From NCBI RefSeq assembly GCF_026914265.1, contig NC_069130.1, forward strand, positions 930,001-994,000: DNA of 64,000 nucleotides. The letters run 5' to 3'. This document shows positions 2,111 to 35,495 of this stretch, piece by piece; position 1 is the first letter of the stretch, and every line of letters starts with the position of its first letter. The DNA is from Mya arenaria (taxonomy: Eukaryota; Mollusca; Bivalvia; Myida; Myidae). The notes under the pieces were generated by a model. The model did not search any database and was not told the DNA's origin. It was given only the letters and a program-made list of their open reading frames with translations. The position numbers and the translations under genes were made by a program.

Positions 2111-2111
2111 T

Positions 2112-3360
2112 AGTATCGTCCATGGCCGAGAGTGTAAGATTATAAGTATCTTCCATGGCCGAGAGTGTAAGATAGGTTCATTCCGACCCGAGCGTAGGGT
2201 GTTTTGCGGAAACGAGGTTTACCGAATTTCCGCAAAACGCCCTGCGCGAGGGTCGGGATGAACCTATCTTACACGAGCGGCTATGGTAGATGCTTTTTTC
2301 TCCCACCTCAGTTAAACAAAATTAAGTAAAAATGTATTTTTTTGCCGGAACTCTTTTGTGCTTAGTGAAAAAAATTGCGTACGGATATGCATTAATTCGT
2401 GGTTGTCATGGATATTCGCGCAGTGATTCAGCGTGTGTAAATGGTCTGATCTATCTTTAAATAGTTCTAAGAAGAGTGAAGCATTATTTCTTGAAAGGTG
2501 CGTGAAAACTGTTTTTTGGTGACATTTAAAGCGAGAAATAATTAATTAGCGTTCTAAATATTGCCACCAGACAAGGTTTCCATGATGCGCTACAGACGAC
2601 AGTCTTCAACAAGGGAGGTAATTACAATGTGGTGACCATTAAAAGAAGTTCCATACGGGCATTTTATCTTCGCCCGTGGGCAAGATAGAATTTCTAGCAT
2701 GGTTAAATTAATGGATCTACGTATCTGAGGTGGGAGAAAGGTTCATTCCGACCCGAGCGTAGGTGTTTTGCGGAAACGAGGTTTACCGAGTTTCCGCAAA
2801 ACACCTTGCGCGAGGGTCGGGATGAACCTATCTTACACGAGCGGCTATGGTAGATGCTTTTTCTCCCACCTCAGTTAAACAAAATTAAGTAAAAATGTAT
2901 TTTTTTGCTGGAACTCTTTTGTGCTTAGTGAAAATAATTGCGTATGGATATGCGATAGCACGTGGTTGTCATGGATATCCGCGCAGTGATCCAGTTAATG
3001 TTAATAGTCAAATCGGTCTTTTTAAATAGTTATAAGGCGAATGAAGCATTATTTCTTTAATGGTGCGTGAAAACTGTTTTATGGTGACATTTGAAGCGAG
3101 AAATAATTAATCAGCATTCTAAATATTGCCACAAGACAAGGTTTCCATGATGCTACAGACGACATTCTTTAACAAGGGGGGTAATTACAAAGTGATGACC
3201 ATTAAAAAGGAGTTCCATACGGGCATTTTATCTTCGCCCGTGGGTAAGATAAGAATTTCTAGCATGGTTAAATTATTGGATCTACTTATCTGAGGTGGGA
3301 GAAAATAATATTTAGCATGGTTAAATTATTGGATCTACTTATCTGTAGTTGGGAGAAAAG
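2112..3360. repeat. Two tandem ~565-bp hairpin-headed elements plus a truncated third
   Basis: Each copy begins with a long palindrome: one arm contains GTTCATTCCGACCCGAGCG and GTTTTGCGGAAA, the other TTTCCGCAAAAC and GGGTCGGGATGAACC. In copy one the palindrome extends to about 2148-2292 (arms near 70 bp). It recurs at 2741-2850, a period of 565 bp. Each palindrome is followed by a common ~450-bp body ending in GAGGTGGGAGAAA. A third, truncated tail copy lies at about 3304-3360. Just before copy one, a ~32-bp unit containing CCATGGCCGAGAGTGTAAGA is repeated twice (about 2112-2170). No coding capacity is seen; this is probably a nonautonomous element or satellite seed. Confidence 0.75.
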
Positions 3361-9700: not shown

Positions 9701-12700
9701 TACTTTCCGTTCTCAGGAGAGTGTGTGGACAAGAAAGAAGTGATTAACCAGACTGTGATGGAAGTGCTGTTCAAAATCAAGGACTCAGACACAAACCCTG
9801 TACTCCAGCTTAAGCCCATTACACCAGATATTTCTCCTATGAAACAGTATGGCTCTAGTCCTATGGGGTAAGTATTTATATTATAATATAAGTTAAAGTT
9901 TACCAGGGATTCCCCTAGGAGCTTTTAGCTTAAGGTCAATAGACCTTCAAGGTTGACATTATACCAGAAAGTTCTTCTATGAAACAGTACGGCTCCAGTC
10001 ATATGGGGAAGGTATATACATCATAAAATATGTAGAAGTTTACCAGATATTTCTCCTTGATTAGGGATTTCCTTAGGAATTTTCAGCTGAGGGTCTAAGC
10101 AGCTGAGGGTCCTTAGACCCTCAAGGTTGACAAATCGGGGTCAGGTAATTCTATCTGGTACCCTTTTATGGTTTTACTTTAAAAAAGTTAAGTAGGGGAG
10201 TTACAGACTTGCACTGTAAGTTTGTATGGTCCCTAACAAAATCATCAAATTAGGGACTCTGGTTTTTTCTGTGTTTGGGAAATCCTAGGTATTGCAGCTA
10301 AGCAGGTAACTTATAAATTAAAGTTTTAAAAAAATATTGTTTTTTTTACTATAGGGAAATTCATATTCATGTAACTATCTCAAAGTGAGAGTTACAGCAT
10401 ATTTTTGTTAATTAGTGCTACTAAAGGTATTTCATCATAATCAAGACAAAGGAAATTTGTATAATTAAAGAATATATAACATTGAAAAGGAGACTTAATA
10501 CCTTTAAAATTATGAGATGGATAATTAATTTCTTTATCATTTCACAGAGGAAGCCCTATGATGCCGACACCAGACACACCCCGAAGGGAATTCACCAGTA
10601 AGATGCCCCAGCCCCAGTGTAAGGAGGTGGAAATGGTCAACTATCTCCTTGACAGTTATGAGAGGGTCGCGGGAGAAGAGAGACTTGCTCCTAAGGTTGG
10701 AAGATTTCTTGTGATATTTGTAGACTAGTCAGCCAATATAAGGGCCACCCACAAAAATAGCATGTGCCTTATCAATCAATCTTGTCTGTCCGCATTGCTA
10801 ATCTTTTTTCTTCAAAACTGAAGCAAGCTCATTTAGTATTCTATCTGTGTAGAGCTATAAGTTACTGTAATGATCTCTTTATAAAATCTGCTTGTTAATT
10901 TGCAATGATTTATTTTGATACTTGATGATAAAAGATGTAGATGTTAAAATGTGTGTGTCCAATTCACAATTTATCACATTTTTGACCGGACCTCTTCTAA
11001 ACCTAAGACTTTAAAAACATAATCATTATTATACTATTAATCTAATTTCTTCTTTGTCTTGTTATATATATTTCACCATGTTTTACACAGCAAAAGTAAA
11101 CAAGTAGATGATAATATTATGCCAGAAGCAGGATTTGAACCTGGGTTCTCTAGGTCTGCAGTCTAGGACCATATCCATTACACACTGTAGACAGATAAAA
11201 ACTTGAGAGTTTTATTTAACATATAAACAAATGTAAATGTTAGTTCCTTAAACAAGGAAAATGGATATAACCTGGTTTAATGTATTCATTTAGATTACAT
11301 AACTTGTGTTGGTTACAGAGGGCGAGTGTTCCACCCATGAGTGACATGTTGGCGTCGGCCAGACACCAGTGTGCCTGTCATACTTCGCTTGTTCTCCAGG
11401 GGGTGCTTACTAAACCTAGGTATGTGAGGGGGTGGGAAAGGGGGTTGTGTTTTAGGGAGAGTAAATTAAAATGTTAACTTTTATTTATTAAATGTCTTTA
11501 AAAAAACAACTGCAATATTTACCTTAGGCAATTTAAACAGGAAACCTTGCTGTCAATATATTTGGCATCAGATAAAATCAACGCTCCTGTCTGCACATGC
11601 TATGACCTCATGAATTGTCAGGTGACGATACTAGTTACCAAGATGGCTGCCACATGTGTGTAACAGACTGCACAAATTGCTATGTGCACCTGTCTGGGTT
11701 CGAACCCACGACCTCTCGCTCTGCAAGTGGACACTCTACTGCATCGCTATAAAAGCTAGCTCTATAGCGAGACAGTATAAGTGCCGCTATATACACATCG
11801 AATATCCAGTTACACATGAATGATTTTTTTACTACTCTGTATTTTTTTTCTAAATAAAACACATTCAGTTATTTTTCTTTGTGCAAATTACTGCCTTCTG
11901 CTGTTTCTTTTTGTAGAAAAGGTGTCCATTTTCACCAAAATAAAATCATTATAATTTTCCCAATTTTGTGAACATAGTCTCCATGAATGAATAACAAAGT
12001 AACGTATTCAAAACAATTCACTGACATAAATATTATAAAGCATGTCAATAATAGATGGGGGCCGTTTCATTAAAGGATTTTAGTTGTAACTTCAACAATC
12101 TTAAATCTGTATAAAGATTAGCAATTATTATACATGTACATCGATTAGTTTTATTTACTCTACTTCGTGTTCATTTTCAATGCTGGCTCAAGTTCAATTC
12201 ACTCAAATAAGTAACAAAATAATGAAACTAGGACACTAAGATAATTTTAATTTACGACAAAAATCATTATTGAAATGCATCCCTGGTAAATATATGAATG
12301 CTATAAGAAATATTTTTTTTGGGAATATCATAATAAAAATGATACTTTACAGGTCATTAGCAGCCAGTTCCCTATTGTTACCATATCTTCTCTCACACAA
12401 CCTGCCCCGGGGTTTCATCACAGAGTTGGTCTTCAGCACGCACAGGGATAAGGACTCATTCAGGAAGGTATGTGGTTTTTAAGTGGGCAGATTTTTCTAT
12501 CTCTGATACCAAAAAGAACTTGGCGGAAGCCATACTTTTACCCATGCAATCTACAACGAGGGTTCCTCAAGAGTTGATGTTCAGCACTTATGGGGGTATA
12601 GACTCATTCAGAAAGGTCTGTGGATTTTTAAGTGGATTTTTACCTCATGTACAAAAGTGAAAAATGACCAGTGCTGTATCATATCCTGTATAAACTGTAG

Positions 12701-15700
12701 GGGATGGGGGTTGGGGTGCCGAGTTAAACCACTTGTATTCAGTAGGCACAGAAGTATTGGCTCTCTTCTGAGGTGGTTGGCAAGTAGGTATATTTTCATC
12801 TAGGAATATTTTCATCAATTTACTTGTATAATCTAGGTGTGTCATATATGTATTACCATGTTAACTTGAAATACAGAAATTACAAGAAACATTACTTTTT
12901 ATAGTTTTAAGTAACTTTGACATCTTTAACAAACTAAAAATGTTTAAGAAGGTAAATCTCTCCTACGCACAGGGTACAGAAAATAGAAAATTCAGCTCTC
13001 TAAATGCTTATCAAATTATGCTCACCCTGAACCAATTTCTGACCCCTGTGCGCAAGAGTGAAATACCTATCTGCAAATGCAAGTCTCTATCACCGCATGC
13101 ACACATGTTAATCTGTTTGGTCATAATTATCTGTCCATTTATTGATTTTCCTTTATACCAGGTGTTTGAGCCATTACTACAGTCATTACATCGATACGTA
13201 CAGACGTTATCCCTGGACACTGATGACTATCGCGAGGTGGTGGCAGTGTTGTCGGAGCTTGTAGAGATCAAATGTGGGCCAGCCAGGCCTGTTTGTAACC
13301 TGGTAAGTTTCTTGAACGCTATCATTATAGTGGCACTCGGGCAAAGCCCCTTTGATAAGTGCTCTGTTAAGATTCTAAGACATTTTAGGTTTTTGAAGCA
13401 TAGTGCACCAACAGAATGTAAGTCAAATCACACGGATCCACCAAAATCATGTATCTTTGGATGAGTTAGAGTTTTACCTCCTGTATAACCAATACAAAAT
13501 CTGTACTCTGAAATCAGATTTTATGAAGGCATTGGTCAAAGTTTCTTGTAATTTGACTTGTCTAGGATGTTACTTAGCCATGCATCGGTGGATTTTAACT
13601 TTGCACACATGTTCACCACATCGTGACTGTGTGTGTGAGATTTAAGTCTGTTGGTCAAAGGTCAAGGGCAAACTTAAATTGAAGTGACCTTTCACAAATG
13701 TTTACCATGAGTAGCCAAAAAAACAAAATAAGTTCAATGTTCATAAAAGCGCTTTGATATTCAATTTTACAACCTTTCACAGAACTGATTCCTTATTTCT
13801 ATTCAGCAGTGCACATGGTGCTTTTTGCTTTTGCTGACAAAGGTCTAGCTGATATAAAGTGACCCTTATCAATCTGTATACCTTTCCATCTTGATGAGTT
13901 GTGGCCAGTTTATATTTTTACCTCAATTTGTGGTTATACTCCTCTTATATACCTTTACAACATTCATTGGTTATAATGATTCCCTTTTTACCTACAGATG
14001 GTTGAACTTTCTAACTGGCTACCAGATGTGTTCAGCCAGGCGTGGGGTATGGAAGTGGCTATACACCCCTTATATACTGTTACACCATCCATTGGCTATC
14101 ATAAATGGTTCTCTTTTTACCTACAGATGGTTGAACTTTCTAACTGGCTACCAGATGTGTTCAGCCAGGCTGGCGGTATGGAGGTGGCCAGGTTGTCATT
14201 CCTGGGACCATTCTTCGCACTTGGTGTGTTTGCCGAGGATAATGTGAGTACAAAGTTAGATCATTATTATTAGGTACTTTTTACCTTACCATTGTATTTT
14301 TTTATAGAAAAGAACTGACATTTCTTTTTTAATCTGTACGAGGTTATTCTAAAAGATCAACGTTTTCCCTTGGAGTAAATTTGCCCCAGGCCAAAAAAAT
14401 GGTTTGATTAGGGTAACATCCTTTTCAAAAACAGGTATGGAAGATAGGCTTTTTTATTTTATTTTTTTTCATACATGCAGTTGTATTGATTTTAAATACA
14501 AGTGTTGCTTTAGGGGTAACATCATCCAGTAGAAATTTTGGGAAACTTATATCAAAGTCCTGTGTCCTCTCATTTAGTTATTTTAAGACTTTTAGAAGAC
14601 TTAAATTTAAGAAGTCAATGTTTGTCTGAAAAAGATTGTTTTAAAACCAAATAAGAATTCTGGTAAATGCTGTTTTAATGCATATAGTTATCAAGTGCAG
14701 TATCTTTCAACCCATTGCCAGGGACTAACTAATGGGGTGGGTATGGTGGGGTGTACCCTGCAATTTATGTCATTTCCTGCATTCTTAGTTTTACTAATCT
14801 GCTTTATAGTTCAGCTATAAAATTGTTGTTTTTTCATATTTTTTTGTATTCCTCAAAGTATTTTAACTAAACAATTTCACATGGTAGTGAATGGTTATGT
14901 TTATATTGACACCGATAATGTGTAAAACCCTGCCTCCCTGAAATCTGCTGTCCTTGTACATAAAAAGTGGGAATCATGTGAATCATGCGATCATAAATAA
15001 CAATTATGTGCAATAAAGTAATATATCAAACAATCATTTAATCAGATAGGAGATATCAATTAGGAAAAAAACATTGATATATTAAATTATATTACAATAT
15101 CACAAGCTTCACCTTCAAGCCGGCTGACATCATCTGCACACACATGCATATATTTGCTATAAATAGAATGATGAGATCACCAAACTGGACAGTGTTAAAG
15201 GGACTGTGTCACAGATTGGCACCAAAAAAAGTTTTTTACTGTAACGAATCTCAGGACAATTATCTAATAGAATGTGTTACGCTTTGATATCATAATTGTA
15301 AAAAAAGTACCAAAATGTAAAAACAAAATTGTGTCGGAGACCGGGTTTGTACCCGCATCGCCAAAATTGAAGTCCAGTGACTTACTTACTGAGCTATTAA
15401 GGCTTACTCCAATCAGATGACATAATTAAGCTATAAACCTACCTTGGTAATATCACGTGATAACACCGACTAGCCAATCACGCATAAGGAATGAATTCTA
15501 CCTGGTAGACATACCCAGTAACTTTTTTTAATGGAAAAATACGAAATAACTGCTGAACTTTGATAAATTGTAAACTATGTGGTACTTTAATAAGTAAGTT
15601 TCAATGCATTGTACACATCGATGCCAAGTTTATGTCATTTTTCGACAATTTTCTTTTTTTCCGCTATTTTATCATCTGTGAGACAGCCCCTTTAACAACA

Positions 15701-18700
15701 TTGATGTTAATGTTAACAAATTTCTGAACAATCTGCCTAATACTTAATTTAATAACTCATGAAAACACACATACAAGTACTTAAAACATATGTACTGAAA
15801 TGGTAAAGTGATATTTATTAAAAACAATTGCAGCATTTGTATAAAAAGTAGCAAAGTTGCTTTAAGTGTTTTTCATTCATCCCAAGGTCTAAATAGGTAA
15901 TTAAAGGCTATATGTGCTTTCATAGTCTGTTCCAGTTTCGTGTAGGTGAGTTGTTGAAGGTAGTACAGGAAAGGGATACAGTCAATATATCGGTCAATGT
16001 CACCTTCTATGCTGAACAGTTCATCTAAAAGATCTGGTGGAACACAGAATATTTCATTTTTTGTGAAGCGTATACACATCGTTGTGTATTTTTTTAGCAT
16101 CTCTGTATTGGAGTTGATGAGCAATTTGTTTTTAAACTCGGAGCTTGTTTCTGGATAATCCTTTTCCTGATGTGCACAGCAATGCCCCACGTCAGGACCC
16201 AGCAGTCCTTCACAGTGGGTCAGTACTTCTGCAGCTTCATCATACTGCCATGCGCAGTACAACATGGAGGCAAATTTTAACTTACTTGACATACGGTCAG
16301 AGTCCAGTGAAAACTGATACAAGTTAAAGATATCTTGTGTGATTGGTTGTCCGCGCTCCATGCACCTTGAAGCCAGCATGGAGGCAAGCATGTTGTGCAG
16401 GAATGGAGTCAGCCCAGAAAATACTTCCTGTTCTAGGTCACTTTGGTTATCAGACATGTTCTCTAGAGTATTCAATTGGCTTACATTGCCATCAACTGAA
16501 GTATCAACTGTTATCAAATTGTTCAATTTATGGTCATATATTTCCATTAACAGTAGTTTATGTAGAACAGCACTACAGGCCTGGGTTCTTGTACTCACTT
16601 TCTGATGTGGTATGTTTGCAACACCTGAACATTGTTGCAATCTAAAACCAATTTCATCCATAGGAGTGTTGATCAAGCACTGTAGTTTCGTGTTGATCAT
16701 GACAGAGATTGGAAATAATGCTGCATAGTTTTGGAAGCTCCCAAAAGTCCAACTTTCCCACAAATAAATCAACTCCAGAGATTGTAAAGTGGGGATAATA
16801 TTTCTGTTTGACCCATCGTTTTATTGTTTTCAAAAGTAGACACACACATTTCACAATATTGTCTTCCCTCCATATCTCAGCTGGATAGTTTTCTATTGTA
16901 AACATCATTGCAGTTTTAATGTAAAAGTGCTAAATCTATCATCAAACTCAGGCTTAAATAAAGTTTTCCTAATTATTTTGGTGAGTGTATATGTTTGAAC
17001 TTGAACAGGGCTAAAATCAAACATTAGATCTCGTTCCATCAATGAGGTTGAAAATCTCCACTGCCATTTTGAATAGGAATAACTAGTTAACTTTGAAGGA
17101 ACCAATAATCCTATAGGAGGATCACGTTTAGTTGGGCTCTCAGTGTAGCCCTGTGGCACTAGGAAGACTCCAACCTCCCTAGCTCTGGCTAATGTCTCAG
17201 GCTTGGGCCAGTGTCCAGGGCGTGGTCTGTGGAACATGAACTGGCATTCCTAGGGTAGCTGGCCACATTTGTGTGCCCAGACCTTGTCATAGTTTTTATC
17301 AGCTGAAATTAATGGGCCATGTCTATATATTTTACCGGACTTAGATAAGCTCCTCTCAAATTTCTCCTGTTTAGTCATAGTACTAGTCAATATAACTCTC
17401 TCCTCTACATCTAGTATATCATCAATATCCTAATGCTGGAAGTCGGCAGTCACTTCTCATTCTCTGCAAGTAGCAGTGCTGAGGAGGAGTGAGATCATTC
17501 TTTAACACTAGAAGATTTGGCTTTCCAAACTGCCACTCACTCCAATCAAGAGCCACATTTATTTTGCCATCACAGAACAAACTGTCAGTATCAGAGTTCA
17601 TCCCAGGTGTTGTCGTTGCCTCACTCTGACTACCAAATATATATGTAGTACAAATATCATCTCTCAAAACGCCATCAATATTTGACAATGTCTCTTGCAT
17701 CAGGTATGTTCTCCTCCTCCTGGAAGTCACTAAGCTGTTGACCTCGATATCCCCCATCACCTGGGACAGTCGCAGGGAAAACAGTCTCTCACTCTCCCTA
17801 TCACTATCCATAGTTCAGTTCTTTTTAAAATTGGTTCCCATGAAAATTATTCTTTATATCACAGAATATGTATATTGCAATTATATAACTTTAAGTCTAC
17901 TAATTTCGTATTCCAAATTTCCATGCTTAAATCATTCCTTTGTTATTCAAGAGCTGCTTGTGTTGGAAGATCAATATTGTCACGAGATAAATGTTAAAAG
18001 AGATCTTATTGGAATTCCCCAATGACTTGTTTTTAACCAGATTTTCAACGAAAACCGGGTTATTAGAATGAGGTTGTCGTTGGGCGGGCGGGGCGGGCAG
18101 GCGTCAAACATTGGTTTCTGTTCAATAACTTTTGTTAGCATTGATAGATATTGATGAAACTTGGTGTGTAGGTAGCTTATAGGAAGAGCTAGCTTGGGAT
18201 TGCTTTTGAGGGGGGTGGGGATAAGGTCAATGTCACTGTTACTGAAATTTAAAAATGGTGTCTGCCCAATAACTTTAGTTAGCATTGATAGATATTGATG
18301 AAACTTGGAGCGAAGGCAGCTTATGTGAAGAGCTAGCTTGGGAGGTGGGGTCAAGGTCACTGTTCCTAAAAATAGAAAAATGTTTTTTTGTGCCCAACAA
18401 CTTAGTTAGAATTGATAAATAGTGATGAATCTTAGTGTGAATATAGCTTATATGAAGCTGCAGATTGAACTTGCTCATACAACAAATTAATTGGCTATAA
18501 TTTCTTATTGCCCATAACAAAAACCTGGTTTCGTCGCATTGCGGCGCTTCTAGTTTTGTATATACATTTGAAGTTAATGTAGTTTGCTAAAAATCATGCG
18601 CCGGTTTCTCAAAAATACTTTAGAAGTAAATGACTTACTCTTTTGCAAGTCTTAACTTGGTATGAAGATTGGTCATGGTCGATAGATGTGACTTCTTTTT

Positions 18701-24700: not shown

Positions 24701-27700
24701 CCATAATCATGGTTCTAGATCCCAAATTTCAGATCAATGAATATTGATTAGGGATGCAAACGAATATTCGAATATTCGAATATTCGATCGAACGTTTGAT
24801 ATTCGAATGTCAAAATCGGTATTCGAATATTCGATGTTTTTTTTGTTTGATAACAAATAAACCTTTTGCCTACAACTGTGTTGTTGTATTTATTCACTTG
24901 TCTTTTTACAACGACTGATCCCTTATGCCAGGGGCGTGAACGCTATGACACTATACACGTGTCACATGTTAATAAGGGACATATCGTCGGCGACTATATA
25001 AACAGTACCCGTAAATTTACGAAAAATGGCTATTAGACAAGTGACATCAAACAATTATTTTCGGTAAATTTTAATGACCATGCCAATAAAAGATATACGG
25101 AAACAGCAACCAAAGTGGTGTCATGGTTGCCAATTAAGTTGTGCAATATAGCTCAAATCGCCGTAATAATATGAATGACACGTGCTAGTTATGTGCTCTA
25201 AACTATCTTTCATGTTTCAAAATGTCGCTCGTGCGATGAAATGTAACTGTATAGTATAGCGTTTTAGGATAATGTTGTACAATAAATGAGTCAAAATTCA
25301 GGGTCATTTTCGTTTTATTACTGAACTAATCCCCCATTAGGTTTGGATTTACATAGATATATTATGTAGAGATCAATCCCAGAACGAGGCTCTCGTCCTA
25401 CGGAAAGACCCTCCGTTGGTGATCACGACATTCGACCGGGAATTTACGATCATGTTTTTTTTTGCAAATATGAATGCTGTGGAATTGAAATTAATTTGGC
25501 TTTTTATTTGTTCAAAATATTTTGCTTTTTGTTGGATTTATCAGGGTCCGTCGCGTGTACCGGCTATGGCAAAAGCCCCGGCTATAAATGTAGAATATAA
25601 TAATAGTAGTTAACTACATTTCTTAAATATTAATTTTGTTAATCGAATATTCGAATATTCGATCGAAAGAATCACCGAATATTCGAATATCAATTTTCCC
25701 ATTCGTTTACATCCCTAATATTGATCAGTTAACGCATAACCAGCAAAACCCTTAATCTTTAAACACAACCCTAAATGGCAATTAGCCAGTAAACAATACA
25801 CAGGATATTTGACACCCTGTGGTGGCATCACGTCCATAAAAACAGCACCTGGTCAGCTGGGGATGAACAAGACAGATTGAGACATTTCTTAAACTGTGCT
25901 TTAAAGGTTTTTAAAGTTTTGGTGAAATTAGTCATGCTTTAGCTGCTTTAGGCAGGAGGTCCCAGGAAGTTTTCAATGTAGTGTTTTAAACTAACCATTT
26001 TTTCCCCCCTTTTAACCTTTATTTGGATACCAGACTACAGTTGTATAGACCGTTATTGTCATCCTTTGAAACTATGGCTATGATTGCAGGGTCAGACCCT
26101 GTTCCACCTTGGCAAGAGCCAAAATTCCCGACCGAGTGTTTCACCCTGACTGTCAATGCCCACCACCTATCAATCCTACCCGTGGTACAGCGACACCAGC
26201 GCTGCGTACGGGCGATACGTGACCTCTCCCGGGTCGTTGAAGAGCTTGAGAATTCTGAGCCCATTTGGAAACACTTTCCGCAGGCAGCTCGCAATCGACA
26301 GATTGTGAAGAAATATAAACAACAGTTCCAGGTCTGTACTGCTTAGCTTTGTAAACTGAATGAAATAAATTGAAAGAGAAAGTAAAGAGGTGTAGAACCC
26401 GCACAGTAAATTTTAACACACGGGTGTAACATGGTGGAAATGAGAGTGTAAGATATAATGTTAACTAAACTAAGCTTAACAATTTCTTCTCCAGAGGTTA
26501 CAGAAGAGCAAGCTGTGTGCCGAGGCTGCCATTATGGATGAATCTTTGTTACGTAGATGCTTACAGTTTTACAGCGTTCTGGCAGAGTACCTGCTGGCGA
26601 TTGCTGATCCTGTGAATAAGGGGTAAGAGCTTGTTACGTAGATGCTTACAGTTTTACAGCGTTCTGGCAGAGTTTTTGCTGGTGATTGCTTATTCTGTGA
26701 ATAAGGGGTAAAAGGCTGTTAGGTAGGGTAGGGAATATCATTCTTGCAGTTTCTTGCAACATTCTAGACCCTTGCAGTTTTACAGCATTCTGGACAAAAG
26801 CTTGATGTGCATTGCAGACCAAGTAAATAAGTTGTAAAGGGGGTGGGGGGAGTGTAACTTTGTAAATATTGGTTCCCATTATATGATTCTTGCAGTTTTA
26901 CAGAACCAATAAACAAGGGATAAGGGGCTACTTTGAGTACATTGAACAAATACTGTACTGAATATTTTGAGAGAAAAAATATTAGTTCCAGTAGATTTTT
27001 TCCCAAAGTGTATTGAACTGATCTTCATGTGCTCCTTAATTATTTTTTTCTGTATTTGAATTTATGTTTCTAGTGTTTGCAATTTACTTTAAAGAAATAA
27101 ACCCTGATTATGTATCTATTTGTTTATATGTTTTTCTTGTTTGGGATTGAAAACTGGTTAGCGCGTTATAGTTAGAATTTTGATTATCCCTTCAGAACTT
27201 GCATGCACTTGTCTTGTTGTTTGTATTAACACAAAATATGTCTTTACCTTTACCTTTCAGAACTATATTACCACTGCCAGCTGAAGTTTCGCCCTTGTTC
27301 CAAGCACTGCCAGAGTTTAACCTGGAAGATGTAGCGGAATTTACGCTCTTTGTTGCTCAGTAAGTATCTTACAGGAGTCAGAAACTTCACTCTTTACAGG
27401 ATTAAAAAAACTTTCAACTCTTAATAACTCTTGACAACTCTTGGCAACTATAACAGATATGTTTAAATGCAGGACAATCTTAGGCTCTTAAAATGCTCCA
27501 AACCTTAGAGCTTAAAGGAGGCTTTGCCCTCTATAACCCCACCAACATGCTGCCCAGGTCCTGCAATAGGGCCTAACTAGGGTCTCACTAGTACCCAGCG
27601 TGATATTCAGGGATCTGGCTTTCAGCATTTCTCAACCCTGAATTTAATAGTAAACCATGTACTGAGTTGATGGCCAGTATGGTGATTTTTTCACAATTAT

Positions 27701-30700
27701 CAAAATTAAGATCTTGAACAAGCCTGTCACTAATACTGAATATCAGCCTGCCACCATCGTGCTGTCCTGGACCTGCAATAGGGCCTTACTAACACCCCCA
27801 GCATAATGTCTGGCTATCAGCAATTCTCACCCCTGATTTTAATGAGATGATGATCAGTCTGGTGATTTTTTCACAATCATCGAACTTGAGATATTGAACA
27901 AATTCAAGTCTATCTATTCCCCATTGTCAACCTGCTGTAATATACCCATGTTTGTATGTTAACAGAGCTATGCCCCAGGCACTAGAAGACCCCTGTACAG
28001 ATAGACTACTGCAGCTGTTGATTGTATTTGTATGCAGTCCTGGCTATGTTAACAACCCATATCTATTGGCCAAACTGGTCGAAGTCATGTTTTACTTCAA
28101 TCCGGCAGTACAGGTAAGCGGATAAAAAGAGGTTATCTCCCTTACCAGAATTGAATGGTAAAATTAAAACATGTGTTTGTGCAGGCATGTGATTCATTAT
28201 CTGGAACAACAGTGATATGGTTTCAACAAGCAATTTACAATAATGCTATTAAAGAGACTAGACACAGATGATAATATTGCAAAGAAAATACTTATCAAAA
28301 TCTTGTTTATAAATAAATTTGATATTGTTGTGTACAACGAATTGAATCTTACTTACTGATGTGTAAAATCGCTTACGACAAATGTATCTTTTGTAGTTTT
28401 GGCATATTTTTCCAATTCCAAATTGGGTTTGTCTACCATGTATTTATTTCACTGATAAATCTCTATAAACCCCCAGAAAGCATGTAATGAATACTTACAT
28501 TGATAATAGCCTGTGGAATGTTTCTCTACAGCCGAGAATGGACAAGATCCATGAGCGACTTCTCCTCCATGACCTGTCCAGGGAGTTCCTGGCCCCAGCT
28601 CTCATGCAGTTCTACACAGGTAACAGAATGATGCAACCTAAAGCCAGAAAAATAAAAATGGATTGTAAAGCATGACCATTTCATTTCAAAACATCTCTTA
28701 AAAGCAGTGCAACATGAAATATATATTCAACTGTTCATAATTTTTTTTTATTTTTTTTTTTATGGAGATTAAGTGGTTAGGAAGTAAAAAACAAGCAACT
28801 TATTACCCGCCCCTCAAATTTTGGAGTAGTTTGTGCCAAATAAACAATATTGGTCATATTAAAATAGTTTAATATTTACTTGTCAGGAAAATAAGTTTTG
28901 AAAAAATAATCTGATTTCACTGCCAAAAAAGAATCTACTAATCCAGAAATCTACTAGATCAAGCAACATGTTTTTGAGCAAGTCCAGTATATATATGTTA
29001 TCACATTAAAGATTTACTCTTACTCCCAAATATGATTTACCGAAACTAATACAAATGATTTGATATAACAATAAGACTGAATAAATATTGAAAACAATGG
29101 TTCTTATGAAGGATACCGAGTTTAAATTGAAAGAAAGGTGCAGAAAACATGATTGCAGTAAATCTTAAAGCATTCACCAATCATTTAAAAAATTTGCGTA
29201 TATATAGCTATTAAATACACAATTACAGTATTGTAATCAGTATTTTTTTTTTTTTTTTTTTAATTCATTATTTTGGAAGTAGTTAAAGGTATATCACTCA
29301 AAATTTATGTTTGTTATTCATGTGTATGTATTGATTTTGAATAAAAGTGTCACTTTAAGTATAATTTTTAGAAAATAATCATTATTATCATATAAATTAA
29401 TCTCTGCGATTTCCCTATTTCAGACATTGAGTCTACTGGGTCAAGCAACGAGTTTTATGACAAGTTCAGCATACGCTACCACATTAGTATCATCTTCAAG
29501 GCCATGTGGGGCATACACTCGCATCAGCTCAAGATCATCGAAGAAGCAGAGTATGTATCGGTATTATTATCTCCGATGTTATATAAACTATATGTAACAA
29601 GTTTAGTATAATATGTTGCAATATCATTAACTTCAAGGCCTTGTGGGGCATACACTCACATCAGCTCAAGATCATCGAAGAAGTAGGGTATGTATCAGCT
29701 TAAAAACCGCCTATGTTATATAAGCTATAAGTAACAAGTAATACTTTGCCGCACCATTATTAACTTCAAGGCCTTGTGTGGCTTAACGTCTACAGATCAC
29801 CAAAGAAGCAAAGTTTGTAAATAAGTTTAAATAGCGCCTATGTTATACAAACAAGATTAACAAGTTTAGTTAAGGTAACCACATCATTATAAACTTATAG
29901 GTCATGTAGACCATTGGTTACACCAGCTGAAGATCATCAAAGAACCAGAATGTTTTAGGAAATTAGGAGTGTACATCTAGATTTAATTAGCTCATCTGTT
30001 TTTGAAAGAAAAAAAAAGATCATTGCCATTCAATTGTCTTTGGAAGGGCTGGCAATAACATCATGCTGAACTCAATCTTCCAAAAACTTGGAAACATCTG
30101 TTGAAAGTTTGGATTTGTATAATGTTTTGTTGAAACTTGGTCAAACTAGCCATGGTTACCTTACATCAATATTAAAAAGTAGTATTTCATCATCTTTACA
30201 AAGTTATATTATTTCAAAATATCTCAGTATAATATGGCTTGGCTGAACAGTACAATTGAAATTGATCTGTTACTATTGATTCCGTTCTTGAAAATGTATG
30301 ACAAAATAATACATTCTCAAGACTTGGTATACTGACTGTCGTAGTGACCAACGGACTGACCATCTGACAGACTATCCAACCATTAAATGTATATTCCACT
30401 GTGATTTTCATACCAGATTTTTTAAGACCAATATATAGTTTTGTTTGTTATCCCTTTATTCCTGTTTCTTGTATATTTACAGCAAGGGGAAGCAGTTTGT
30501 GAAGTTTGTGAACATGTTGATGAACGACACCACATTTCTGCTTGACGAAAGTCTTGACTGCCTCAAGCGAATACACGAGGTACAGGAACTCATGACTTCT
30601 GACGAGTGGAACAAGAAATCTCAAGTAAGTATATTTATTCACTGAGGTTATTGTTGTTGTTTTTTGGCATTTTTTATTGTCTATATTTGGTAATATTGTC

Positions 30701-33700
30701 AGTGTCAAAAAGAAATATTTTTTCCAAATGTTTAATAATTGAATAAAAATTCCCAATCAGAAATTTAAAAAAAACATCTGTAACAAAAAACTTTTACTGT
30801 AGTTGATTGTGGTTGAAGCTATATAAGCCCTCAAATAAATTATTAAAAAAGAGTACCTGGTATTTGAGTATACTCCACAAACAAAATCATGTATTAAAAA
30901 ATCCAAGTTTTGTGAAAAAACAAAGGGAAAATTCCCAATTTCAAGGGTAAAGGTCATTTTTTCAAATACCAGGAAAAAAGATGATGTCTATCTGTGTTGT
31001 CATTAAGCAGACTAGGTCAATGCTAACCAGTTAGTGTTAGAAGTTTCACTTAGGTTGGCAATGTTTAGTTAAAATCCCGTCTAACAGTGTAGTCAATAAT
31101 CAGGCTAGTAAGATGCTAGTCAGTTAGTGATAGAGCATTTACTTTGAGGTTGGAGATGTCAGGTTAAATTCCCAAAGTTGCTGCATCATTGTGATCATAT
31201 CGAAGATTATATTAAATAAGAAATGGTGGCTCCCTCACTTTTCACTTGGCATTTGACTACTGTTCAGGGGGCTTTGTATTATTAAGGACATTGGTTAAAC
31301 ACTGGAAAGTTGTCTTTTGTGTATCATTATTTAACACAGGGCATACTAAAATGGCCATGGAGTCTGTTATAGAAAAGGTGGGGTCATGGGGCCCTGACAT
31401 ACTGATGTATGTGACCATGACTTTTCCACTATGCTGTCAATTCATAAAAAACATTTGAAATATGTACAGAGTCTTTTCATTGGTTATCCTAAATCACAAT
31501 ATCTTAATAATGCTCATATGAATATGTATGTGTTGAATGAACTGTAACTATCATTTAGAACTTGTATACATTCAGGAGCAGCAGCAGACAGAGCAGCGAC
31601 AGCTGGCAACAGACGAGAAACAGTGTCGGTCGTACCTGACCCTGGCCACTGAGACAGTAGATATGTTCCATTACCTGACCAACAAGATACAGAAACCCTT
31701 TCTCATACCAGTGTGTATTATAGAGTTATAAATATAAATATATGATCATTATTATTTCTCCATTGGCCATGTTATATTGGCATCACGGTTTCAAACAGCA
31801 TCATATTTAACCTTGACCACTGAGATGGTTGATATATTCCATTACCTGAACACAGGTGAACAAAATACAGAAAGCCTTTCTCATGCTATGACTTATGGTT
31901 CAGTTATAAATATATTATAATTATGAATACCCCATGGGCAATATAATATTGTAATTGACCGAATGGTATCTGTAACAGTTGTGTTTAACCTGACCATCAA
32001 GATACAGAAGCCTTTTCTCCTGCCAGTATGTATTGGAGTCATTATATAGTAATTACCATATTTCCTTAATGTTTGAATACTGGCACCTGAGTGTGAAACA
32101 GTTGTTTCTGGAAATTCCTGTTATAAGTAACTGCTCGTTTTTCTAGAATAAGCTGTCAGACTGGTATATACTTTGAATTACAACCTTAAGAAAGCTGAGA
32201 AAGTCAGTCCATGGAAAATATTGCTTGGACCTTCATTTTAACACATCCATTGACACACCTGATTTTAGTAAATAAAATGTAATTTCCTTTCCCCTAGTGG
32301 TCAAATTCAAAACACAAGCCCGCAAGCACTGCACTGGTAAAATGTTTTCTGGCCTTGCTGAAACTTTGAATTTTATAAAGCAGGGCTTGTTTTGCCAAGC
32401 AATAGTATCAGAATTCGGGCCTGTTCATCCATAAATCTAATTTCGATGTTGTAATCCCCTTACTTCCAGGAATTGGCTGACAGACTTGCCGCCATGTTGA
32501 ATTTTAACCTACAGCAGCTCTGCGGTTCCAAGTGTAAGAATCTTAAGGTCCGAAACCCGGAGAAATACGGCTGGGAGCCTAAGAAGCTGCTGGATTATCT
32601 CACAGACATCTACCTTCACCTTGACTGCCCAGAGTTTTTAGAGGCTATTGCTAATGATGAGGTGAGTTTACAGGACTTTTACTATGAATTTTTTTTATAA
32701 TATGGCTTTAAGTTGAGAACAAATTAACTTTGTAACATTATGATTATCAGAAAGACATGGTCCTGACAGCATTATGGCTTGACAGCGTTATGGCTTCAAA
32801 ATTTCATCTTTGGTTTATACCCAACCAACCATTTATATGGTGAGCTGAGGAAGCCATGACTGATTTAACCAACCAAGGTGAGTATTTTGGCTGGGTCAAA
32901 CAAAAATGCAGCCATATCGGTGCCACTTCACAGATTTGTAGACATACTGACCATCATGTTTTTTGCTCTAAAACTGTTGTCTTGTGAACAAAAAGAATAT
33001 TCCCCTTAAACGATACACTCCGTTTGCAAATATATTTATGATGTAAACCATTTTATTCCAGAGATCCTATCGCAAGGAGCTGTTTGATGACGCTATTGTG
33101 CGTATGCGGCGAGCGTGCATCAAGGTCGAGACAGACATCGAGAAATTCCGGAACATTCAAGAAAAGGTTGAGAGGATTGTCGTACAAAAAGCTCAGGACG
33201 AGAGAGATTATGGGGAGATTCCAGATGAGTTCAGGGGTAAGTGCCATTCACCTTTATCCGTTATATTCAAAGCATAAAGGGATAGTGCACGTTTTCAGGC
33301 CAGATTTAATAATATCTTGGTGAATATATTTGTAAATTTAAAGCTGCACTCTCACAGATTGAACGTTTTGACAACTTTTTTTTTTTTATCTTGGAACGAG
33401 CCAATTTTTGTGAAAATGCATAGACACCAGTGATATAAGACTGCTGACAGCATTATGGCTTGACAGCGTTATGGCTTCAAAATTTCGTCTTTGGTTTATA
33501 CCCAACCAACCATTTATATGGTGAGCTGAGGAAGCCATGACTGATCAAACCATGCTGGCAGTTTTCTTAAACTGTTAGTAACGCTTTTAGCCATAAAACA
33601 TTAATTTTCGAACGGAAATATGAAAATCTACGATCTGATCTTTTGTCAGCAGTCTTATATCACTGGTTTGAAGATCTTCACGAAAAAATTGAATCATTCT

Positions 33701-35495
33701 AAGACAAAAAAATAAAAAGTTGCCAAAAGGATAAATCTGTGAGAGTGCAGCTTTAAATTTCCTTAGTGTCATGTTTTCGTTGTTTTGCTATGCATTTGTA
33801 TGTATTGAACTTAAGCTTGTATTGAAAATGAATTCAACAACTTGTTGCCATCTGTTATGTTCCAACAGATTTAAGATTATCATTAAAGTTATGACTTTAA
33901 GATCTTTAAGTGAAACGGGGGCCCATTACTTGTGGGTGGAAACATGTTTCTATCCTGGATCAAGACAAGTCCAAGCTTCTTAGCTTCTTCTCCGCTCATT
34001 CAGCTCCAGTTGAATCTTAAGAAATATGTTCTTTGAAACACAACACTTTCAAGACCCGATTCTGGCCAGCCAGAAATTTTAATATTAGAATATTTTTCAT
34101 CAAATGTACATTTACTGGAAAGATAAATGTGTAATCTAGGCATGTAGTGCAAAAAAATGTTCATAAAAGCAAATTAAACTCCTGATAAATTTACCAGATA
34201 GCCCATATCAACATGCTATGGTGACCATTTTAACAGTAACGTATATAGGTTTTTATGAGAGATGATGTCATGACTATTAATAGCCACCAATCAGCATATT
34301 AAAGCTGTTGTAGTCATGATAAACATGAATAGGAAATTAAGCTATGAGCTAAAAGCAGCCTACACAATTAAATGGATTAAATGTGGAATGCCTTGAATCA
34401 AGGTTACACTGAAGAGTTCAAGGAAATGATTGTATGTACTGTTACTACCTGACTTGCTTAATGCAAATATTCATATAAATGTGTCTGTGATGTTACATGG
34501 TGAAGTGAGCACTTACTCCATTTTCAGTTACCATAAAGATAAAAGAAATTGCTATAAACATTTCCTGTATTTTAACAACTTGTTGTTTTATTATGGTTTA
34601 AAATCAATGTAAAGACCATGAAGTATACCAGTGCTCCAAATACATCATGTAGTTGAATAAAAACGCATTTAAAATTCTGAAAAATGCAATAGGTTTTGAA
34701 CTAAAAAATACTTTGACCCAAAACTTTATCTCATACATAATTGATGAAATATGAAAACGATCTGTAAAAATTCTGATAAACTTAATCTTTATAAAGCCTG
34801 TCCAAATTTTCCAGTGACCATTCTTTAAAAAATACACATCTCTAAGCTTCTATTAAAGACTTAATTTACTAAAAGCAGTTATAACATATTTTATAAATAT
34901 AAAATATATAGCATATTTTACCCAGTCCAGCTACCAAGCTTAAAAATGGTGGGCCAGCCAGTGATGGTGCGCAACCTGCTGAATCTGCACAACCCTCAGA
35001 CCAATCTGTTCTCATATATATTTCAGATGCTTTGATGGACACACTAATGAAGGACCCAGTCCAACTGCCAAGCGGTAATGTGGTGGACCGCCCCGTGATT
35101 ATGCGCCATCTGCTCAACTCTCAGACTGACCCGTTCAACCGACAGCCATGTAGAGAAGATGATCTCATTCCCAGTATGTACAGACCTTGGTTTCATAAAC
35201 AATTCTTAAAGCTGCACCTTCACAGATATACCGTTTTTACAACTTTTTTTTTGTCTTGGAAAGAGCAAGTTTTTGCGTAAAAATCTGTAAACCAATGATA
35301 AAAGATTGATGATAAAAAATTAGATCGCAGATTGTCATATTTCCATTCGAAAATTAATTACTAACGTTATTAACGGTTTAGGAAAATGCATAAAACATCA
35401 ATTTTTGAACTTAAAATATAAAATTCTGTTTTTTAGGAGAAGATATCAAGACGAGGATTGAAGATTGGATTAATAAATCAAAGGCGCCCAAGTGA
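3757..35495 (+). CDS. UBE4B: Ubiquitin conjugation factor E4 B (U-box E3/E4 ligase), complete, 28 exons
   Basis: Extends ubiquitin chains on substrates (E4 activity) and acts as an E3 through a C-terminal U-box that recruits E2; the yeast orthologue Ufd2 works with Cdc48/p97 in protein quality control. Coding exons: 3757-3780, 3926-4060, 6902-6989, 7244-7313, 8248-8335, 9063-9195, 9717-9867, 10548-10695, 11319-11419, 12353-12467, 13162-13302, 14127-14243, 19061-19159, 22938-23051, 23740-23829, 24281-24386, 26090-26331, 26495-26622, 27261-27359, 27966-28113, 28532-28619, 29424-29550, 30483-30624, 31576-31710, 32470-32661, 33062-33236, 35027-35173, 35437-35495. Lengths sum to 3,402 nt (1,133 aa plus stop) and every junction is phase-consistent with GT..AG. 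The start MNELTQDE followed by VRRRRLARL parallels human [18 protein letters not shown] Ser/Pro-rich N-terminus is followed by the UFD2 core (about residues 400-1050, including [10 protein letters not shown] and NPEKYG) and the U-box. Human isoforms are 1,173 and 1,302 aa. Least certain: the exon 16/17 junction, and the exon 17 donor GTCTGT. Confidence 0.93.
4426..6540. mobile_element. Nested pair of DNA elements with CAGGG..CCCTG termini (UBE4B intron 2)
   Basis: Outer element: left end CAGGGTTCGAATTT (4426-4439), right end AAATTCGAACCCTG (6527-6540), inverted copies of each other. Inner element: CAGGGCTCTCAC at 4440 to GCGAGAGCCCTG ending 5627 (1,188 bp), inserted directly after the outer left terminus. 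Flanks of the inner copy share AATTT. The outer body holds repeated GTCACTCGCAAAATTTTGCGAG-like pieces. CAGGG-type termini are common among hAT-like nonautonomous elements, but I do not see a clean 8-bp target duplication and no transposase frame remains. Confidence 0.65.
7651..8115. mobile_element. Short nonautonomous element, TATGCCCCTGAAGGGCA head, GTGACAGCTC tail (intron 4)
   Basis: The left end forms a small hairpin (TGCCCCTGAAGGGCA) followed by a CTGTCTGTCT stretch and AAGGTCAAG-type words. The right end is TGTGACAGCTCATA. The same head and tail type is seen at 20737-22355. The layout recalls tandem-repeat-bearing bivalve elements such as pearl and other Helitron-like nonautonomous elements; that family link is inference. 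Confidence 0.45.
9905..10135 (+). repeat. Decayed tandem copies of the exon 7 3' end
   Basis: Downstream of UBE4B exon 7 the sequence at 9965-10012 repeats the exon end (TTCTTCTATGAAACAGTA, then GGCTCCAGTCATATGGGG). A further piece at about 10030-10130 repeats ACCAGATATTTCTCCT and the flanking intron word CCCTAGGA/CCTTAGGA. Together they form a short ladder of exon-plus-intron duplications. A GTATAT follows the first copy where the real donor GTAAGT stands. Confidence 0.7.
11099..11200 (-). repeat. tRNA-like SINE remnant (minus strand)
   Basis: On the minus strand the segment carries a box-B-like GGTTCAAATCC and an upstream box-A-like region, with the plus-strand reading GGATTTGAACCTGGGTTCTC. 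It is too diverged and lacks a full cloverleaf, so I treat it as a SINE head, not a tRNA gene. Confidence 0.4.
11560..11870 (-). repeat. tRNA-derived SINE (minus strand, intron 9)
   Basis: Reading the minus strand, TAGCGATGCAGTAGAGTG (box A region) is followed by GAGGTCGTGGGTTCGAACCC (perfect box B) about 40 bp later. This spacing is typical of a tRNA-derived Pol III promoter. No acceptor-stem closure is visible, and the sequence continues into non-tRNA DNA, which fits a SINE. Confidence 0.5.
12058..12285. mobile_element. MITE, family A (GGGGCCGTTTCATTAAAGGA terminus), intron 9
   Basis: Left end GGGCCGTTTCATTAAAGGAT, right end ATCATTATTGAAATGCATCC, which are diverged inverted copies. Internally it contains CTTAAATCTGTATA and TTCAATGCTGGCT, both shared with the interrupted copy at 37459-38993. 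No coding capacity. Confidence 0.6.
12468..12660 (+). repeat. Decayed copy of UBE4B exon 10 3' end
   Basis: About 95 bp after exon 10 the sequence at 12562-12625 repeats its end: AGAGTTGATGTTCAGCAC, then GGGGGTATAGACTCATTCAG, then AAAGGTCTGTGG against the exon's AGGAAGGTATGTGG. The donor-like GGTCTGTGG is kept. The copy is degenerate but clearly colinear with the exon. Confidence 0.7.
13929..14126 (+). repeat. UBE4B: 129-bp tandem duplication of the intron 11/exon 12 boundary
   Basis: The 3' splice site and first ~60 bp of exon 12 occur twice, at 13998 and 14127, with a 129-bp period. Both copies have the same acceptor, TTTTTACCTACAG, followed by ATGGTTGAACTTTCTAACTG. The span 13998-14126 is exactly 43 codons with no stop and joins exon 12 in frame. 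Use of the upstream acceptor would therefore lengthen the protein by 43 residues within the conserved region. Confidence 0.85.
15195..15695. mobile_element. TTAA-flanked TIR element carrying a tRNA-like segment (intron 12)
   Basis: Left end AAAGGGACTGTGTCACAGAT and right end ATCTGTGAGACAGCCCCTTT are near-perfect inverted copies, each bordered by TTAA. Between them, on the minus strand at about 15336-15412, is a tRNA-like run with TAGCTCAGTAAGTAAGTCAC (box A) and GGGTACAAACCC (box B). No transposase frame. TTAA borders are compatible with a piggyBac-type target, but assignment is tentative. Confidence 0.6.
15873..17811 (-). pseudogene. Mab-21 domain-containing (cGAS-like fold) pseudogene, antisense in UBE4B intron 12
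   Basis: An intronless Mab-21-family gene. In order on the minus strand: N-terminal [19 protein letters not shown] (the GS...[D/E]hD nucleotidyltransferase motif), [76 protein letters not shown] and an extended C-terminus ending RPWDE. These blocks are characteristic of the bivalve Mab-21 expansion. The frame is interrupted at four places: frame changes near 17422, 16908 and 16700, and an in-frame stop near 17250. Hence I call it a pseudogene, unless assembly errors explain the breaks. A minus-strand AATAAA (15819-15814) lies ~55 bp after the stop. The last 299 codons (from 16772) remain open, so decay may be recent. Confidence 0.8.
18029..18556. mobile_element. Helitron-like nonautonomous element with three ~150-bp internal repeats (intron 12)
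   Basis: Begins near ACCAGATTTTCAACGAAAAC, contains a GGGCGGGCGGGGCGGGC stretch, then three diverged tandem units each carrying AATAACTTTAGTTAGCATTG, GATAGATATTGATGAAACTT and AGGTCACTGTT. It ends with a hairpin GCATTGCGGCGC followed by TTCTAGTTTT. A terminal hairpin just before CTAGT resembles Helitron-type 3' ends. The family call is inference. Confidence 0.5.
19272..20736. repeat. Satellite-like array, ~150-180-bp units with higher-order duplication (intron 13)
   Basis: Tandem units share GGGGCATATCTTATAGAATA, GTATCAACTTGAAACTTCAT, GTAGATAGATCTCATTGAGG and GCAGTGCACAA. At least eight units are seen. A block of about 630 bp (for example the stretch carrying TGTAGTGCACAATAACAGTA near 19571 and again near 20200) is itself repeated almost identically, indicating a recent higher-order duplication. 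It abuts the next array without a spacer. Confidence 0.8.
20737..22355. mobile_element. Nonautonomous element with eight ~180-bp tandem units (pearl-like layout), intron 13
   Basis: Head TATACCCCCGAAGGTGGGCATA (hairpin-forming), then CTGTCCGTCTATCCATCC, then about eight tandem units of ~180 bp. Each unit carries AGGTCAAGGTCACACTTAG, GGAATGCTGCATATAA and GTCCGGGCTGTAACTTTCCC, starting near 20910, 21090, 21268, 21418, 21600, 21780, 21958 and (degenerate) 22135. Tail TGTGACAGCTCTTGTTTG. A defined head and tail around a tandem core matches the architecture described for bivalve pearl/Helitron-like elements. The short open frames here are frame accidents of the unit. Confidence 0.65.
24395..24640. 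repeat. Dispersed repeat, copy 1 (intron 16)
   Basis: Shares with 28996-29230 an ordered set of words: CTCTTACTCCCA, ACAACGGTTCTTA (or ACAATGGTTCTTA), ACCAATCATTTAA and AGCTATTAAATAC. The two copies are diverged and have the same orientation. No termini are clear. Confidence 0.5.
24749..25717. mobile_element. hAT-type nonautonomous DNA transposon with exact 8-bp target duplication (intron 16)
   Basis: Left terminus TAGGGATGCAAACGAATATT, right terminus AATATCAATTTTCCCATTCG continuing to TTTACATCCCTA, inverted to each other. The 969-bp element is flanked by perfect 8-bp direct repeats ATATTGAT (24741-24748 and 25718-25725). TAGGGATG ends plus an 8-bp duplication fit the hAT superfamily. Both ends carry strings of the self-complementary word CGAATATTCG. 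No intact transposase frame is visible, so it is nonautonomous. Confidence 0.88.
26623..26930 (+). repeat. Ladder of three decayed copies of UBE4B exon 18 3' end
   Basis: Copy 1 (26629-26710) is nearly identical to exon 18: TTACGTAGATGCTTACAGTT, CAGCGTTCTGGCAGAG and GTGAATAAGGGGTAA. Copy 2 (26772-26840) keeps TTGCAGTTTTACAGCATTCTG and GTAAATAAGTTGTAA. Copy 3 (26888-26925) keeps TTGCAGTTTTACAG and AAACAAGGGATAAGG. Identity drops and length shortens with distance from the real exon, suggesting successive duplications of different age. Confidence 0.8.
27530..27935. repeat. Tandem duplication inside UBE4B intron 19
   Basis: Two diverged ~200-bp copies, at about 27545-27735 and 27760-27925. They share CCTGCAATAGGGCCT, TCAGCA..TTCTCA..CCTGA, TGGTGATTTTTTCACAAT and a GATCTTGAACAA/GATATTGAACAA end. 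No exon sequence is included. Confidence 0.65.
28996..29360. repeat. Dispersed repeat, copy 2 (intron 21)
   Basis: Counterpart of 24395-24640. It starts ATTAAAGATTTACTCTTACT and includes GAAAACAATGGTTCTTATGA, CACCAATCATTTAA and a 19-base T run near 29250. The tail GTATTGATTTTGAATAAAAG resembles a piece of intron 12 near 14480. It probably marks a MITE family with poorly kept ends. Confidence 0.45.
29560..29965 (+). repeat. Ladder of three decayed copies of UBE4B exon 22 3' end
   Basis: After exon 22, whose end reads ATGTGGGGCATACACTCGCA, the end recurs at about 29631-29692 (TTGTGGGGCATACACTCACA, AGATCATCGAAGAAGTAGGG, then GTATGT). It recurs again at about 29767-29817 (more diverged) and 29893-29955 (CACCAGCTGAAGATCATCAA). 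Spacing is ~130 bp. The first copy keeps the GTATGT donor. Confidence 0.8.
31010..31180 (+). repeat. Two degenerate tRNA-like segments in tandem (intron 23)
   Basis: CCAGTTAGTGTTAGAAGTTT..AGTTAAAATCCC (about 31025-31078) and TCAGTTAGTGATAGAGCATT..AGGTTAAATTCCC (about 31115-31175) resemble a tRNA D-arm and T-arm at normal spacing. They are ~90 bp apart. Both have mismatched box B sequences, so they are SINE or tRNA relics, not functional genes. Confidence 0.35.
31711..32060 (+). repeat. Ladder of two decayed copies of UBE4B exon 24 3' end
   Basis: Copy 1 (about 31800-31905) repeats TGACCACTGAGATGGTTGAT, ATTCCATTACCTGAACA and AATACAGAAAGCCTTTCTC, followed by the same intron words (TTATAAATATATTATA). 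Copy 2 (about 31985-32045) keeps CTGACCATCAAGATACAGAA, GCCTTTTCTCCTGCCAG and TATGTATT. Each copy includes the position of the exon 24 donor. Confidence 0.8.
32769..32873. repeat. ~105-bp segment shared with 33447-33551
   Basis: GCATTATGGCTTGACAGCGT through GAGGAAGCCATGACTGAT in intron 25 is almost identical to 33447-33551 in intron 26; I see about one substitution before the copies diverge at their ends. The intron 26 copy sits inside a palindromic MITE. Confidence 0.85.
33339..33756. mobile_element. Palindromic MITE, family B, with an internal insertion (intron 26)
   Basis: Termini TAAAGCTGCACTCTCACAGA and TCTGTGAGAGTGCAGCTTTA are inverted repeats, and the arms continue inward (GATATAAGACTGCTGACA against TGTCAGCAGTCTTATATCAC). 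The loop holds the ~105-bp segment also found in intron 25. Other copies of this family lie at 35206-35420 (half), 39719-39925 and 50285-50627. Confidence 0.85.
34921..35012 (+). repeat. Decayed copy of the U-box exon, upstream of exon 27
   Basis: ACCCAGTCCAGCTACCAAGC, GTGGGCCAGCCAGTGATGGT and GCGCAACCTGCTGAATCTGC, then ACCCTCAGACCAATCTGTTC, follow exon 27 (ACCCAGTCCAACTGCCAAGC and so on) colinearly, ending just before the real 3' splice site at 35026. The copy encodes no intact U-box. It precedes the functional exon, as the exon 12 duplicate also does. Confidence 0.8.
35027..35495 (+). CDS. UBE4B: UBE4B exons 27-28: U-box domain and C-terminus
   Basis: These two exons encode about residues 1066-1133. 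Motifs seen are [36 protein letters not shown] and a final helix ending SKAPK before TGA. This is the RING-like, zinc-free U-box fold that binds the E2; the DP..LPSG..DR and DPFNR signatures are intact. Exon 27 starts after TTTCAG at 35026 and joins exon 28 through GTATGT..TTTTAG. The intron between them holds a half-copy of a palindromic MITE. Confidence 0.92.
35206..35420. mobile_element. Half-copy of palindromic MITE, family B (intron 27)
   Basis: Starts TTAAAGCTGCACCTTCACAG, continues with GTCTTGGAAAGAGCAAGTTT and CCATTCGAAAATTAATTACT, but lacks the closing terminus. Confidence 0.65.

What the first reader, a model, noticed from the sequence alone, without database searches (positions are those of the whole stretch)
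9905..35030. Recurrent local duplication of exon/splice-site boundaries across UBE4B
At seven separate exons (7, 10, 12, 18, 22, 24 and 27) I find decayed copies of the exon end plus adjoining intron, placed in the neighbouring intron at periods of roughly 95-230 bp. Five sites carry the copies downstream (3' exon end plus donor) and two carry them upstream (exons 12 and 27). Copies at one exon form ladders with falling similarity. One such event would be unremarkable; seven in one gene suggests a mutational process favouring exon-intron junctions, or retention of duplicated splice sites. Selection against disrupted splicing could also explain why only copies outside the functional junction survive.
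Basis: seen in the sequence. Interest (0 to 1): 0.75.

Follow-up and report, generated by a model that had tools for sequence, protein, structure and literature searches.

The report
Neutral tandem duplications at exon edges
The gene really does carry seven old, decayed copies of its own exon edges in neighbouring introns, but they look like ordinary short tandem duplications of a kind also seen in other genes of this animal, so the case is real but not very surprising.

Summary
At each of the seven named exons of UBE4B a self-comparison finds a nearby copy (first lags 85-171 bp, 72-90% identity, E<=4e-5; simulated sequence gave none at E<=1e-3). Six copies carry a splice junction; the exon 27 copy is exon interior only. 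All seven recur in a second, collinear copy of the locus on the same scaffold, so an assembly error is unlikely; exon 18 has one more unit there.
The same scan finds seven intron-only events in the gene, and events touching 8 of 114 exons in 20 loci of other genes. Events with and without exon share one size class: 32 of 42 have lags of 85-249 bp. The simplest reading is a background of short tandem duplication. A duplication across one junction leaves a working junction in place, so it is tolerated, and the conserved exon keeps the pair recognisable longer.
Exon-touching events exceed random placement 1.3-2-fold in UBE4B, a gene picked for the pattern. In control loci the excess is not significant (7 of 12, P 0.10-0.21). 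A junction-seeking process is neither needed nor excluded.

The parts
9717..9867 (+). UBE4B exon 7
   Evidence: open frame with AG and GT borders
9957..10046 (+). copy of exon 7 end plus donor region 9817-9906, lag 140, 82%
   Evidence: aligned; present in second copy
12347..12467 (+). UBE4B exon 10 (start approximate)
12557..12635 (+). copy of exon 10 end plus donor 12408-12486, lag 149, 80%
14127..14243 (+). UBE4B exon 12
13930..14059 (+). upstream copy of intron end, acceptor and first 62 bp of exon 12; AG acceptor kept, copied exon start at 13998, in frame with the exon (129 bp, no stop) in both copies of the locus
26495..26622 (+). UBE4B exon 18
26631..26726 (+). copy of exon 18 end plus donor 26546-26641, lag 85, 90%; weak older copy around 26757-26850
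   Evidence: the second copy of the locus has one more 85-bp unit
29424..29550 (+). UBE4B exon 22
29622..29949 (+). ladder of copies of exon 22 end at lags 134, 270 and 400
31576..31710 (+). UBE4B exon 24
31810..32034 (+). two copies of exon 24 end at lags 171 and 315
35027..35173 (+). UBE4B exon 27 (U-box)
   Evidence: Pfam U-box
34920..34999 (+). upstream copy of exon 27 interior (matches 35054-35133), no splice site in the copy; blastn reports 34920-34983
18112..18457 (+). intron-only local repeat, lags 144 and 272; expanded to an array in the second copy
23908..24164 (+). intron-only local repeat, lag 121
27539..27901 (+). intron-only local repeat, lag 212
30986..31173 (+). intron-only local repeat, lag 93
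19308..20739 (+). intron-only minisatellite array, unit about 157 bp
20820..22265 (+). intron-only minisatellite array, unit about 181 bp
32763..33552 (+). intron-located repeat pair 32763-32871 and 33444-33552, distance 681, 97%

Best explanation
These are ordinary short tandem duplications, with units of about 85-230 bp, that arise in this genome in and outside genes. Repair of staggered DNA breaks or replication slippage makes a second head-to-tail copy (inferred). If the unit crosses one splice junction, the first donor or the last acceptor still serves the exon, so the spare copy is spliced out and is neutral (inferred). Duplications inside an exon or of a whole exon are purged (none seen). 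The copy then decays in the intron while the exon stays conserved, which keeps exon-derived pairs recognisable longer than intron-intron pairs and partly shelters them from large deletions (supported by simulation only). Copy number can still change. Shown: presence, divergence, the shared size class, occurrence in other genes and in unannotated flanking DNA, copy-number difference between the two copies of the locus. Inferred: the repair mechanism, neutrality, and that the exon bias is retention.
For: Same size class with and without exons: 32 of 42 events in 163 kb have lags 85-249 although 15-3000 was allowed (lags below about 45 are hard to detect, and some of the 42 are clusters of several repeats). 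Similar exon-edge events in other genes: 8 of 114 exons in 20 control loci. Intron-only events in UBE4B in equal number, 7 and 7. No event with both copies in exon or a whole exon inside, 0 of 22. In UBE4B the exon part of the pairs is less diverged (K2P 0.149) than the intron part (0.247), as expected if one side is held by selection. Exon share is 2 of 6 among pairs at 88% or more and 12 of 17 below. All seven present in both copies of the locus, with unit number differing at exon 18 and in arrays. Simulated decay and deletion raise the expected exon share from 0.18 to 0.22-0.26 in UBE4B and from 0.33-0.35 to 0.41-0.43 in controls; without large deletions 0.21-0.23 and 0.36-0.42.
Against: The simulated retention does not reach what is seen in UBE4B: 7 of 11 simple events, P 0.003-0.01; 7 of 14 with arrays and the 681-bp pair, P 0.02-0.05. 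Against tolerated random placements, simple events in all loci are 14 of 23 with 6.7 expected, P=0.0008, and with doubled retention odds 10.0, P=0.06; all events 15 of 29 with 8.4 expected, P=0.006, doubled 12.5, P=0.22. UBE4B has more events per length than the control loci, 4.4 against 1.6 per 10 kb, P=0.0008, and more touched exons, 7 of 27 against 8 of 114, P=0.01. The divergence contrast is reversed in controls (exon part 0.250, intron part 0.114), where one young event supplies 178 of 257 intron sites. The young-old contrast is not significant (P=0.16) and depends on the cut: at 85% it is 5 of 9 against 9 of 14, at 90% 1 of 3 against 13 of 20.
Confidence: 0.78

Rival explanations
1. Exon-intron junctions are preferred sites of short tandem duplication in this genome, for example because of transcription-linked strand breaks or replication stress at the composition step between exon and intron.
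For: Excess over tolerated random placement: 14 of 23 simple events, 6.7 expected, P=0.0008. The UBE4B excess remains after simulated retention, P 0.003-0.01.
Against: UBE4B was chosen for the pattern; in the control loci, chosen without knowledge of it, 7 of 12 simple events against simulated shares of 0.36-0.43 gives P 0.10-0.21, and 8 of 15 of all events P 0.13-0.28. Among pairs at 88% or more the exon share is at the random level, 2 of 6 with 1.8 expected; at 85% or more it is 5 of 9 with 2.6 expected, P=0.07. The same lags occur in flanking DNA without known exons.
Confidence: 0.12
2. The copies are kept because they work, as alternative splice sites or as decoys that tune splicing.
For: A kept acceptor copy upstream of exon 12 would add 43 in-frame residues without a stop in both copies of the locus; copied donors at exon 22 and exon 24 score above the functional ones, 11.0 against 9.2 and 9.5 against 7.3.
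Against: Matched stretches are only 69-90% identical; other copied donors are weak or lost. Read-through from exon 22 meets a stop at 29609, before the copied donor at 29687. No transcript data were available.
Confidence: 0.05
3. The copies are an assembly artefact.
For: Most of the window has a second copy at about 97% identity on the same scaffold, so haplotypes may not be fully collapsed here.
Against: The copies are 10-31% diverged from their source, far more than sequencing or phasing errors would give, and all seven recur in the second copy.
Confidence: 0.02

Closest known systems
Small tandem duplications from repair of breaks with protruding ends (Pol alpha-primase and CST; PMC8355091, abstract and introduction read)
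   Same: direct head-to-tail copies, described as common in the human genome and found in other species
   Different: the paper's introduction speaks of insertions under 100 bp; here units are mostly 85-230 bp and old, so the break junctions cannot be read
Inter-boundary and intronic exon duplications as classed by Exonize (PMC12343006, passages and Results section read)
   Same: part of an exon copied across its border or into an intron; reported there in significantly more genes than full-exon duplication
   Different: found there by protein-level matching in 20 annotated genomes; I did not see the table of species
[quoted passage not shown] PMC4974935, title and start of abstract seen in listings only)
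   Same: partial tandem duplication involving splice signals
   Different: there the duplication lies in coding sequence and makes a new intron; here it crosses an existing junction and makes none

Membership tests
short tandem duplication | two direct copies in close succession | tested here: met
   lags 85-171 for the first copies
short tandem duplication | copies abut, with the unit equal to the lag | tested here: inconclusive
   match at least as long as the lag at exons 12, 18 and 22; at exons 7, 10, 24 and 27 only part of the unit is still recognisable
inter-boundary exon duplication | copied stretch spans exon and intron | tested here: met
   6 of 7 exons; the exon 27 copy is exon interior only
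tandem exon duplication with alternative exons | a whole exon with both splice sites copied | tested here: not met
   0 of 22 simple events hold a whole exon
intron gain by tandem duplication | a new intron created in coding sequence | tested here: not met
   copies lie inside existing introns

The most novel reading that the evidence does not exclude
In this clam-like genome, exon-intron junctions are duplicated more often than other intronic positions, by a process linked to transcription or to chromatin at exon edges, so that long genes accumulate spare half-exons and splice sites beside their own.
Probability: 0.12. Interest if true: 0.55.

Novelty: new member of a known kind. Interest (0 to 1): 0.22.

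Why it matters
It shows in one gene how a tandem duplication across a splice junction can stay hidden from selection, and why exon-derived copies may be over-represented among old duplications. Anyone reading partial exon copies in introns as evidence for a junction-seeking process, for lost alternative exons or for functional decoys should first allow for this tolerance and for the longer life of exon-anchored pairs.

Tried and rejected
Detection bias as the full explanation of the UBE4B excess: simulated with substitutions and small indels and with empirical small indels plus large deletions; it raises the exon share but not to 7 of 11. Plain footprint shuffling gives a weaker excess than shuffling limited to tolerated placements; both are reported. 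Rfam search of the window at gathering scores: 0 matches. Paper searches: I saw listings of 15 of 28, 8 of 8, 15 of 305, 15 of 384, 10 of 61 and 12 of 60 papers; none of the listed titles reports junction-biased duplication in bivalves. That says nothing about papers not listed or not held.

Rows dropped: events with footprints over 600 bp (arrays and the 681-bp pair) are left out of the 'simple' counts and kept in the 'all' counts. Searches used UBE4B and 17 control loci (100 exons); one search added two loci; one search added L063, which had no event. One search printed control P values for 7 of 11; with the two added loci the simple count is 7 of 12, and searches give P for that. Control exons are Pfam match spans, so their borders are approximate and some exons are unlisted. 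UBE4B exon 28 was not placed, and exons 1-3 and the starts of exons 10 and 23 are approximate.

Full report
What is there. The window lies at C9:930001-994000 of a 1.216 Gb genome in 18 contigs. [quoted passage not shown] the species was not otherwise tested.

The seven duplications. One search finds a local direct repeat at exons 7, 10, 12, 18, 22, 24 and 27 at E<=4e-5, while 20 simulated sequences gave none at E<=1e-3. Alignments show that six copies carry the junction: donor side at exons 7, 10, 18, 22 and 24, acceptor side at exon 12. The exon 27 copy matches only exon interior. Exons 18, 22 and 24 have further copies, most of them weaker or shorter.

Second copy of the locus. Most of the window has a collinear copy at C9:8.56-8.63 Mb. 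Exons differ by 0.76% (26 exons compared) and aligned sequence as a whole by 1.6-1.8% substitutions. It may be an uncollapsed haplotype or a recent duplication; I cannot tell. All seven exon duplications are there too. Unit numbers differ: exon 18 has one more 85-bp unit, the 18112 repeat has become an array, and a 145-bp array and a 156-bp array seen in the second copy are not found in the window's gene. The duplications are thus older than the split of the two copies, and copy number has changed since.

Not special to exons. The same threshold finds seven intron-only events in the gene. Across 163 kb of window, two flanking stretches and 17 control loci there are 42 events, 32 with lags of 85-249 bp. 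The control set in full is 20 loci with 114 listed exons in 94.3 kb: 15 regions matching a dynein AAA_6 profile, two other Ufd2P_core genes and three myosin-head regions; it has 15 events and 8 touched exons. UBE4B is richer: 14 events in 31.8 kb. The rest of the window up to the 39-bp array has 2 in 20.5 kb, and the 10-kb flanks 6 and 2.

Is there an exon excess? Random shifting of whole events: UBE4B 7 of 14, 5.3 expected, P=0.24; events up to 600 bp 7 of 11, 3.6 expected, P=0.03; controls 7 of 12 and 7 of 11, P=0.38 and 0.22; together 14 of 26, P=0.19, and 14 of 22, P=0.02. Counting only placements that selection would tolerate: simple events 14 of 23, 6.7 expected, P=0.0008, or 10.0 expected and P=0.06 if exon pairs last twice as long; all events 15 of 29, 8.4 expected, P=0.006, or 12.5 and P=0.22. 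A simulation of duplication, decay, small indels and large deletions gives an expected exon share of 0.22-0.26 for UBE4B and 0.41-0.43 for controls, without large deletions 0.21-0.23 and 0.36-0.42. Observed are 7 of 11 (P 0.003-0.01) and 7 of 12 (P 0.10-0.21). The large-deletion rate rests on a handful of differences between the two copies.

Age. Pairs at 88% identity or more are exon-touching in 2 of 6, older ones in 12 of 17 (Fisher P=0.16). This is the direction expected if exon-anchored pairs last longer, but the numbers are small and the cut matters: at 85% it is 5 of 9 against 9 of 14. The exon part of UBE4B pairs is less diverged than the intron part (0.149 and 0.247), yet in controls it is the reverse (0.250 and 0.114), with one young event dominating.

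Splice sites. Of seven copied donors scored, six keep GT; scores range from -2.3 to 11.0, against 3.2 to 11.1 for 23 donors of the gene, and the first exon 24 copy has lost its donor. The copied acceptor before 13998 is intact and in frame with exon 12 over 129 bp in both copies of the locus; whether it is used is unknown.

Verdict. Real, well above chance, but of a known kind: short tandem duplications (PMC8355091, abstract and introduction read), some of which cross exon borders (PMC12343006, passages and Results read). The mechanism of origin is inferred. A junction preference is possible but not shown. On re-checking the calls I lowered confidence in the main reading from 0.80 to 0.78 and raised the junction-preference reading from 0.10 to 0.12, because one search gives somewhat lower control P values and the young-old contrast depends on the cut.

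Noticed in passing
C9:8561593-8629000 (second copy of the window): Most of the window recurs 7.6 Mb away on the same scaffold at about 97% identity; several myosin and dynein matches also come in pairs with near-identical scores on one scaffold, which may mean uncollapsed haplotypes in the assembly.
   Followed up: partly
window 13998-14126: In-frame, stop-free extension of exon 12 by 43 residues if the copied acceptor is used, in both copies of the locus.
   Followed up: partly
window 56786-64000: Long array of a 39-bp unit that runs to the end of the window; it aligns to the second copy mostly at 65-82% identity.
   Followed up: no
   Followed up: no
window 15873-17814, minus strand: Three long open frames in an intron of UBE4B on the other strand; Pfam gives no family at E<=0.001. 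They recall Mab-21-like proteins to me, from memory only.
   Followed up: partly
L017 (C9:920001-930000): Six local duplications in 10 kb, the densest of the stretches tabulated.
   Followed up: no
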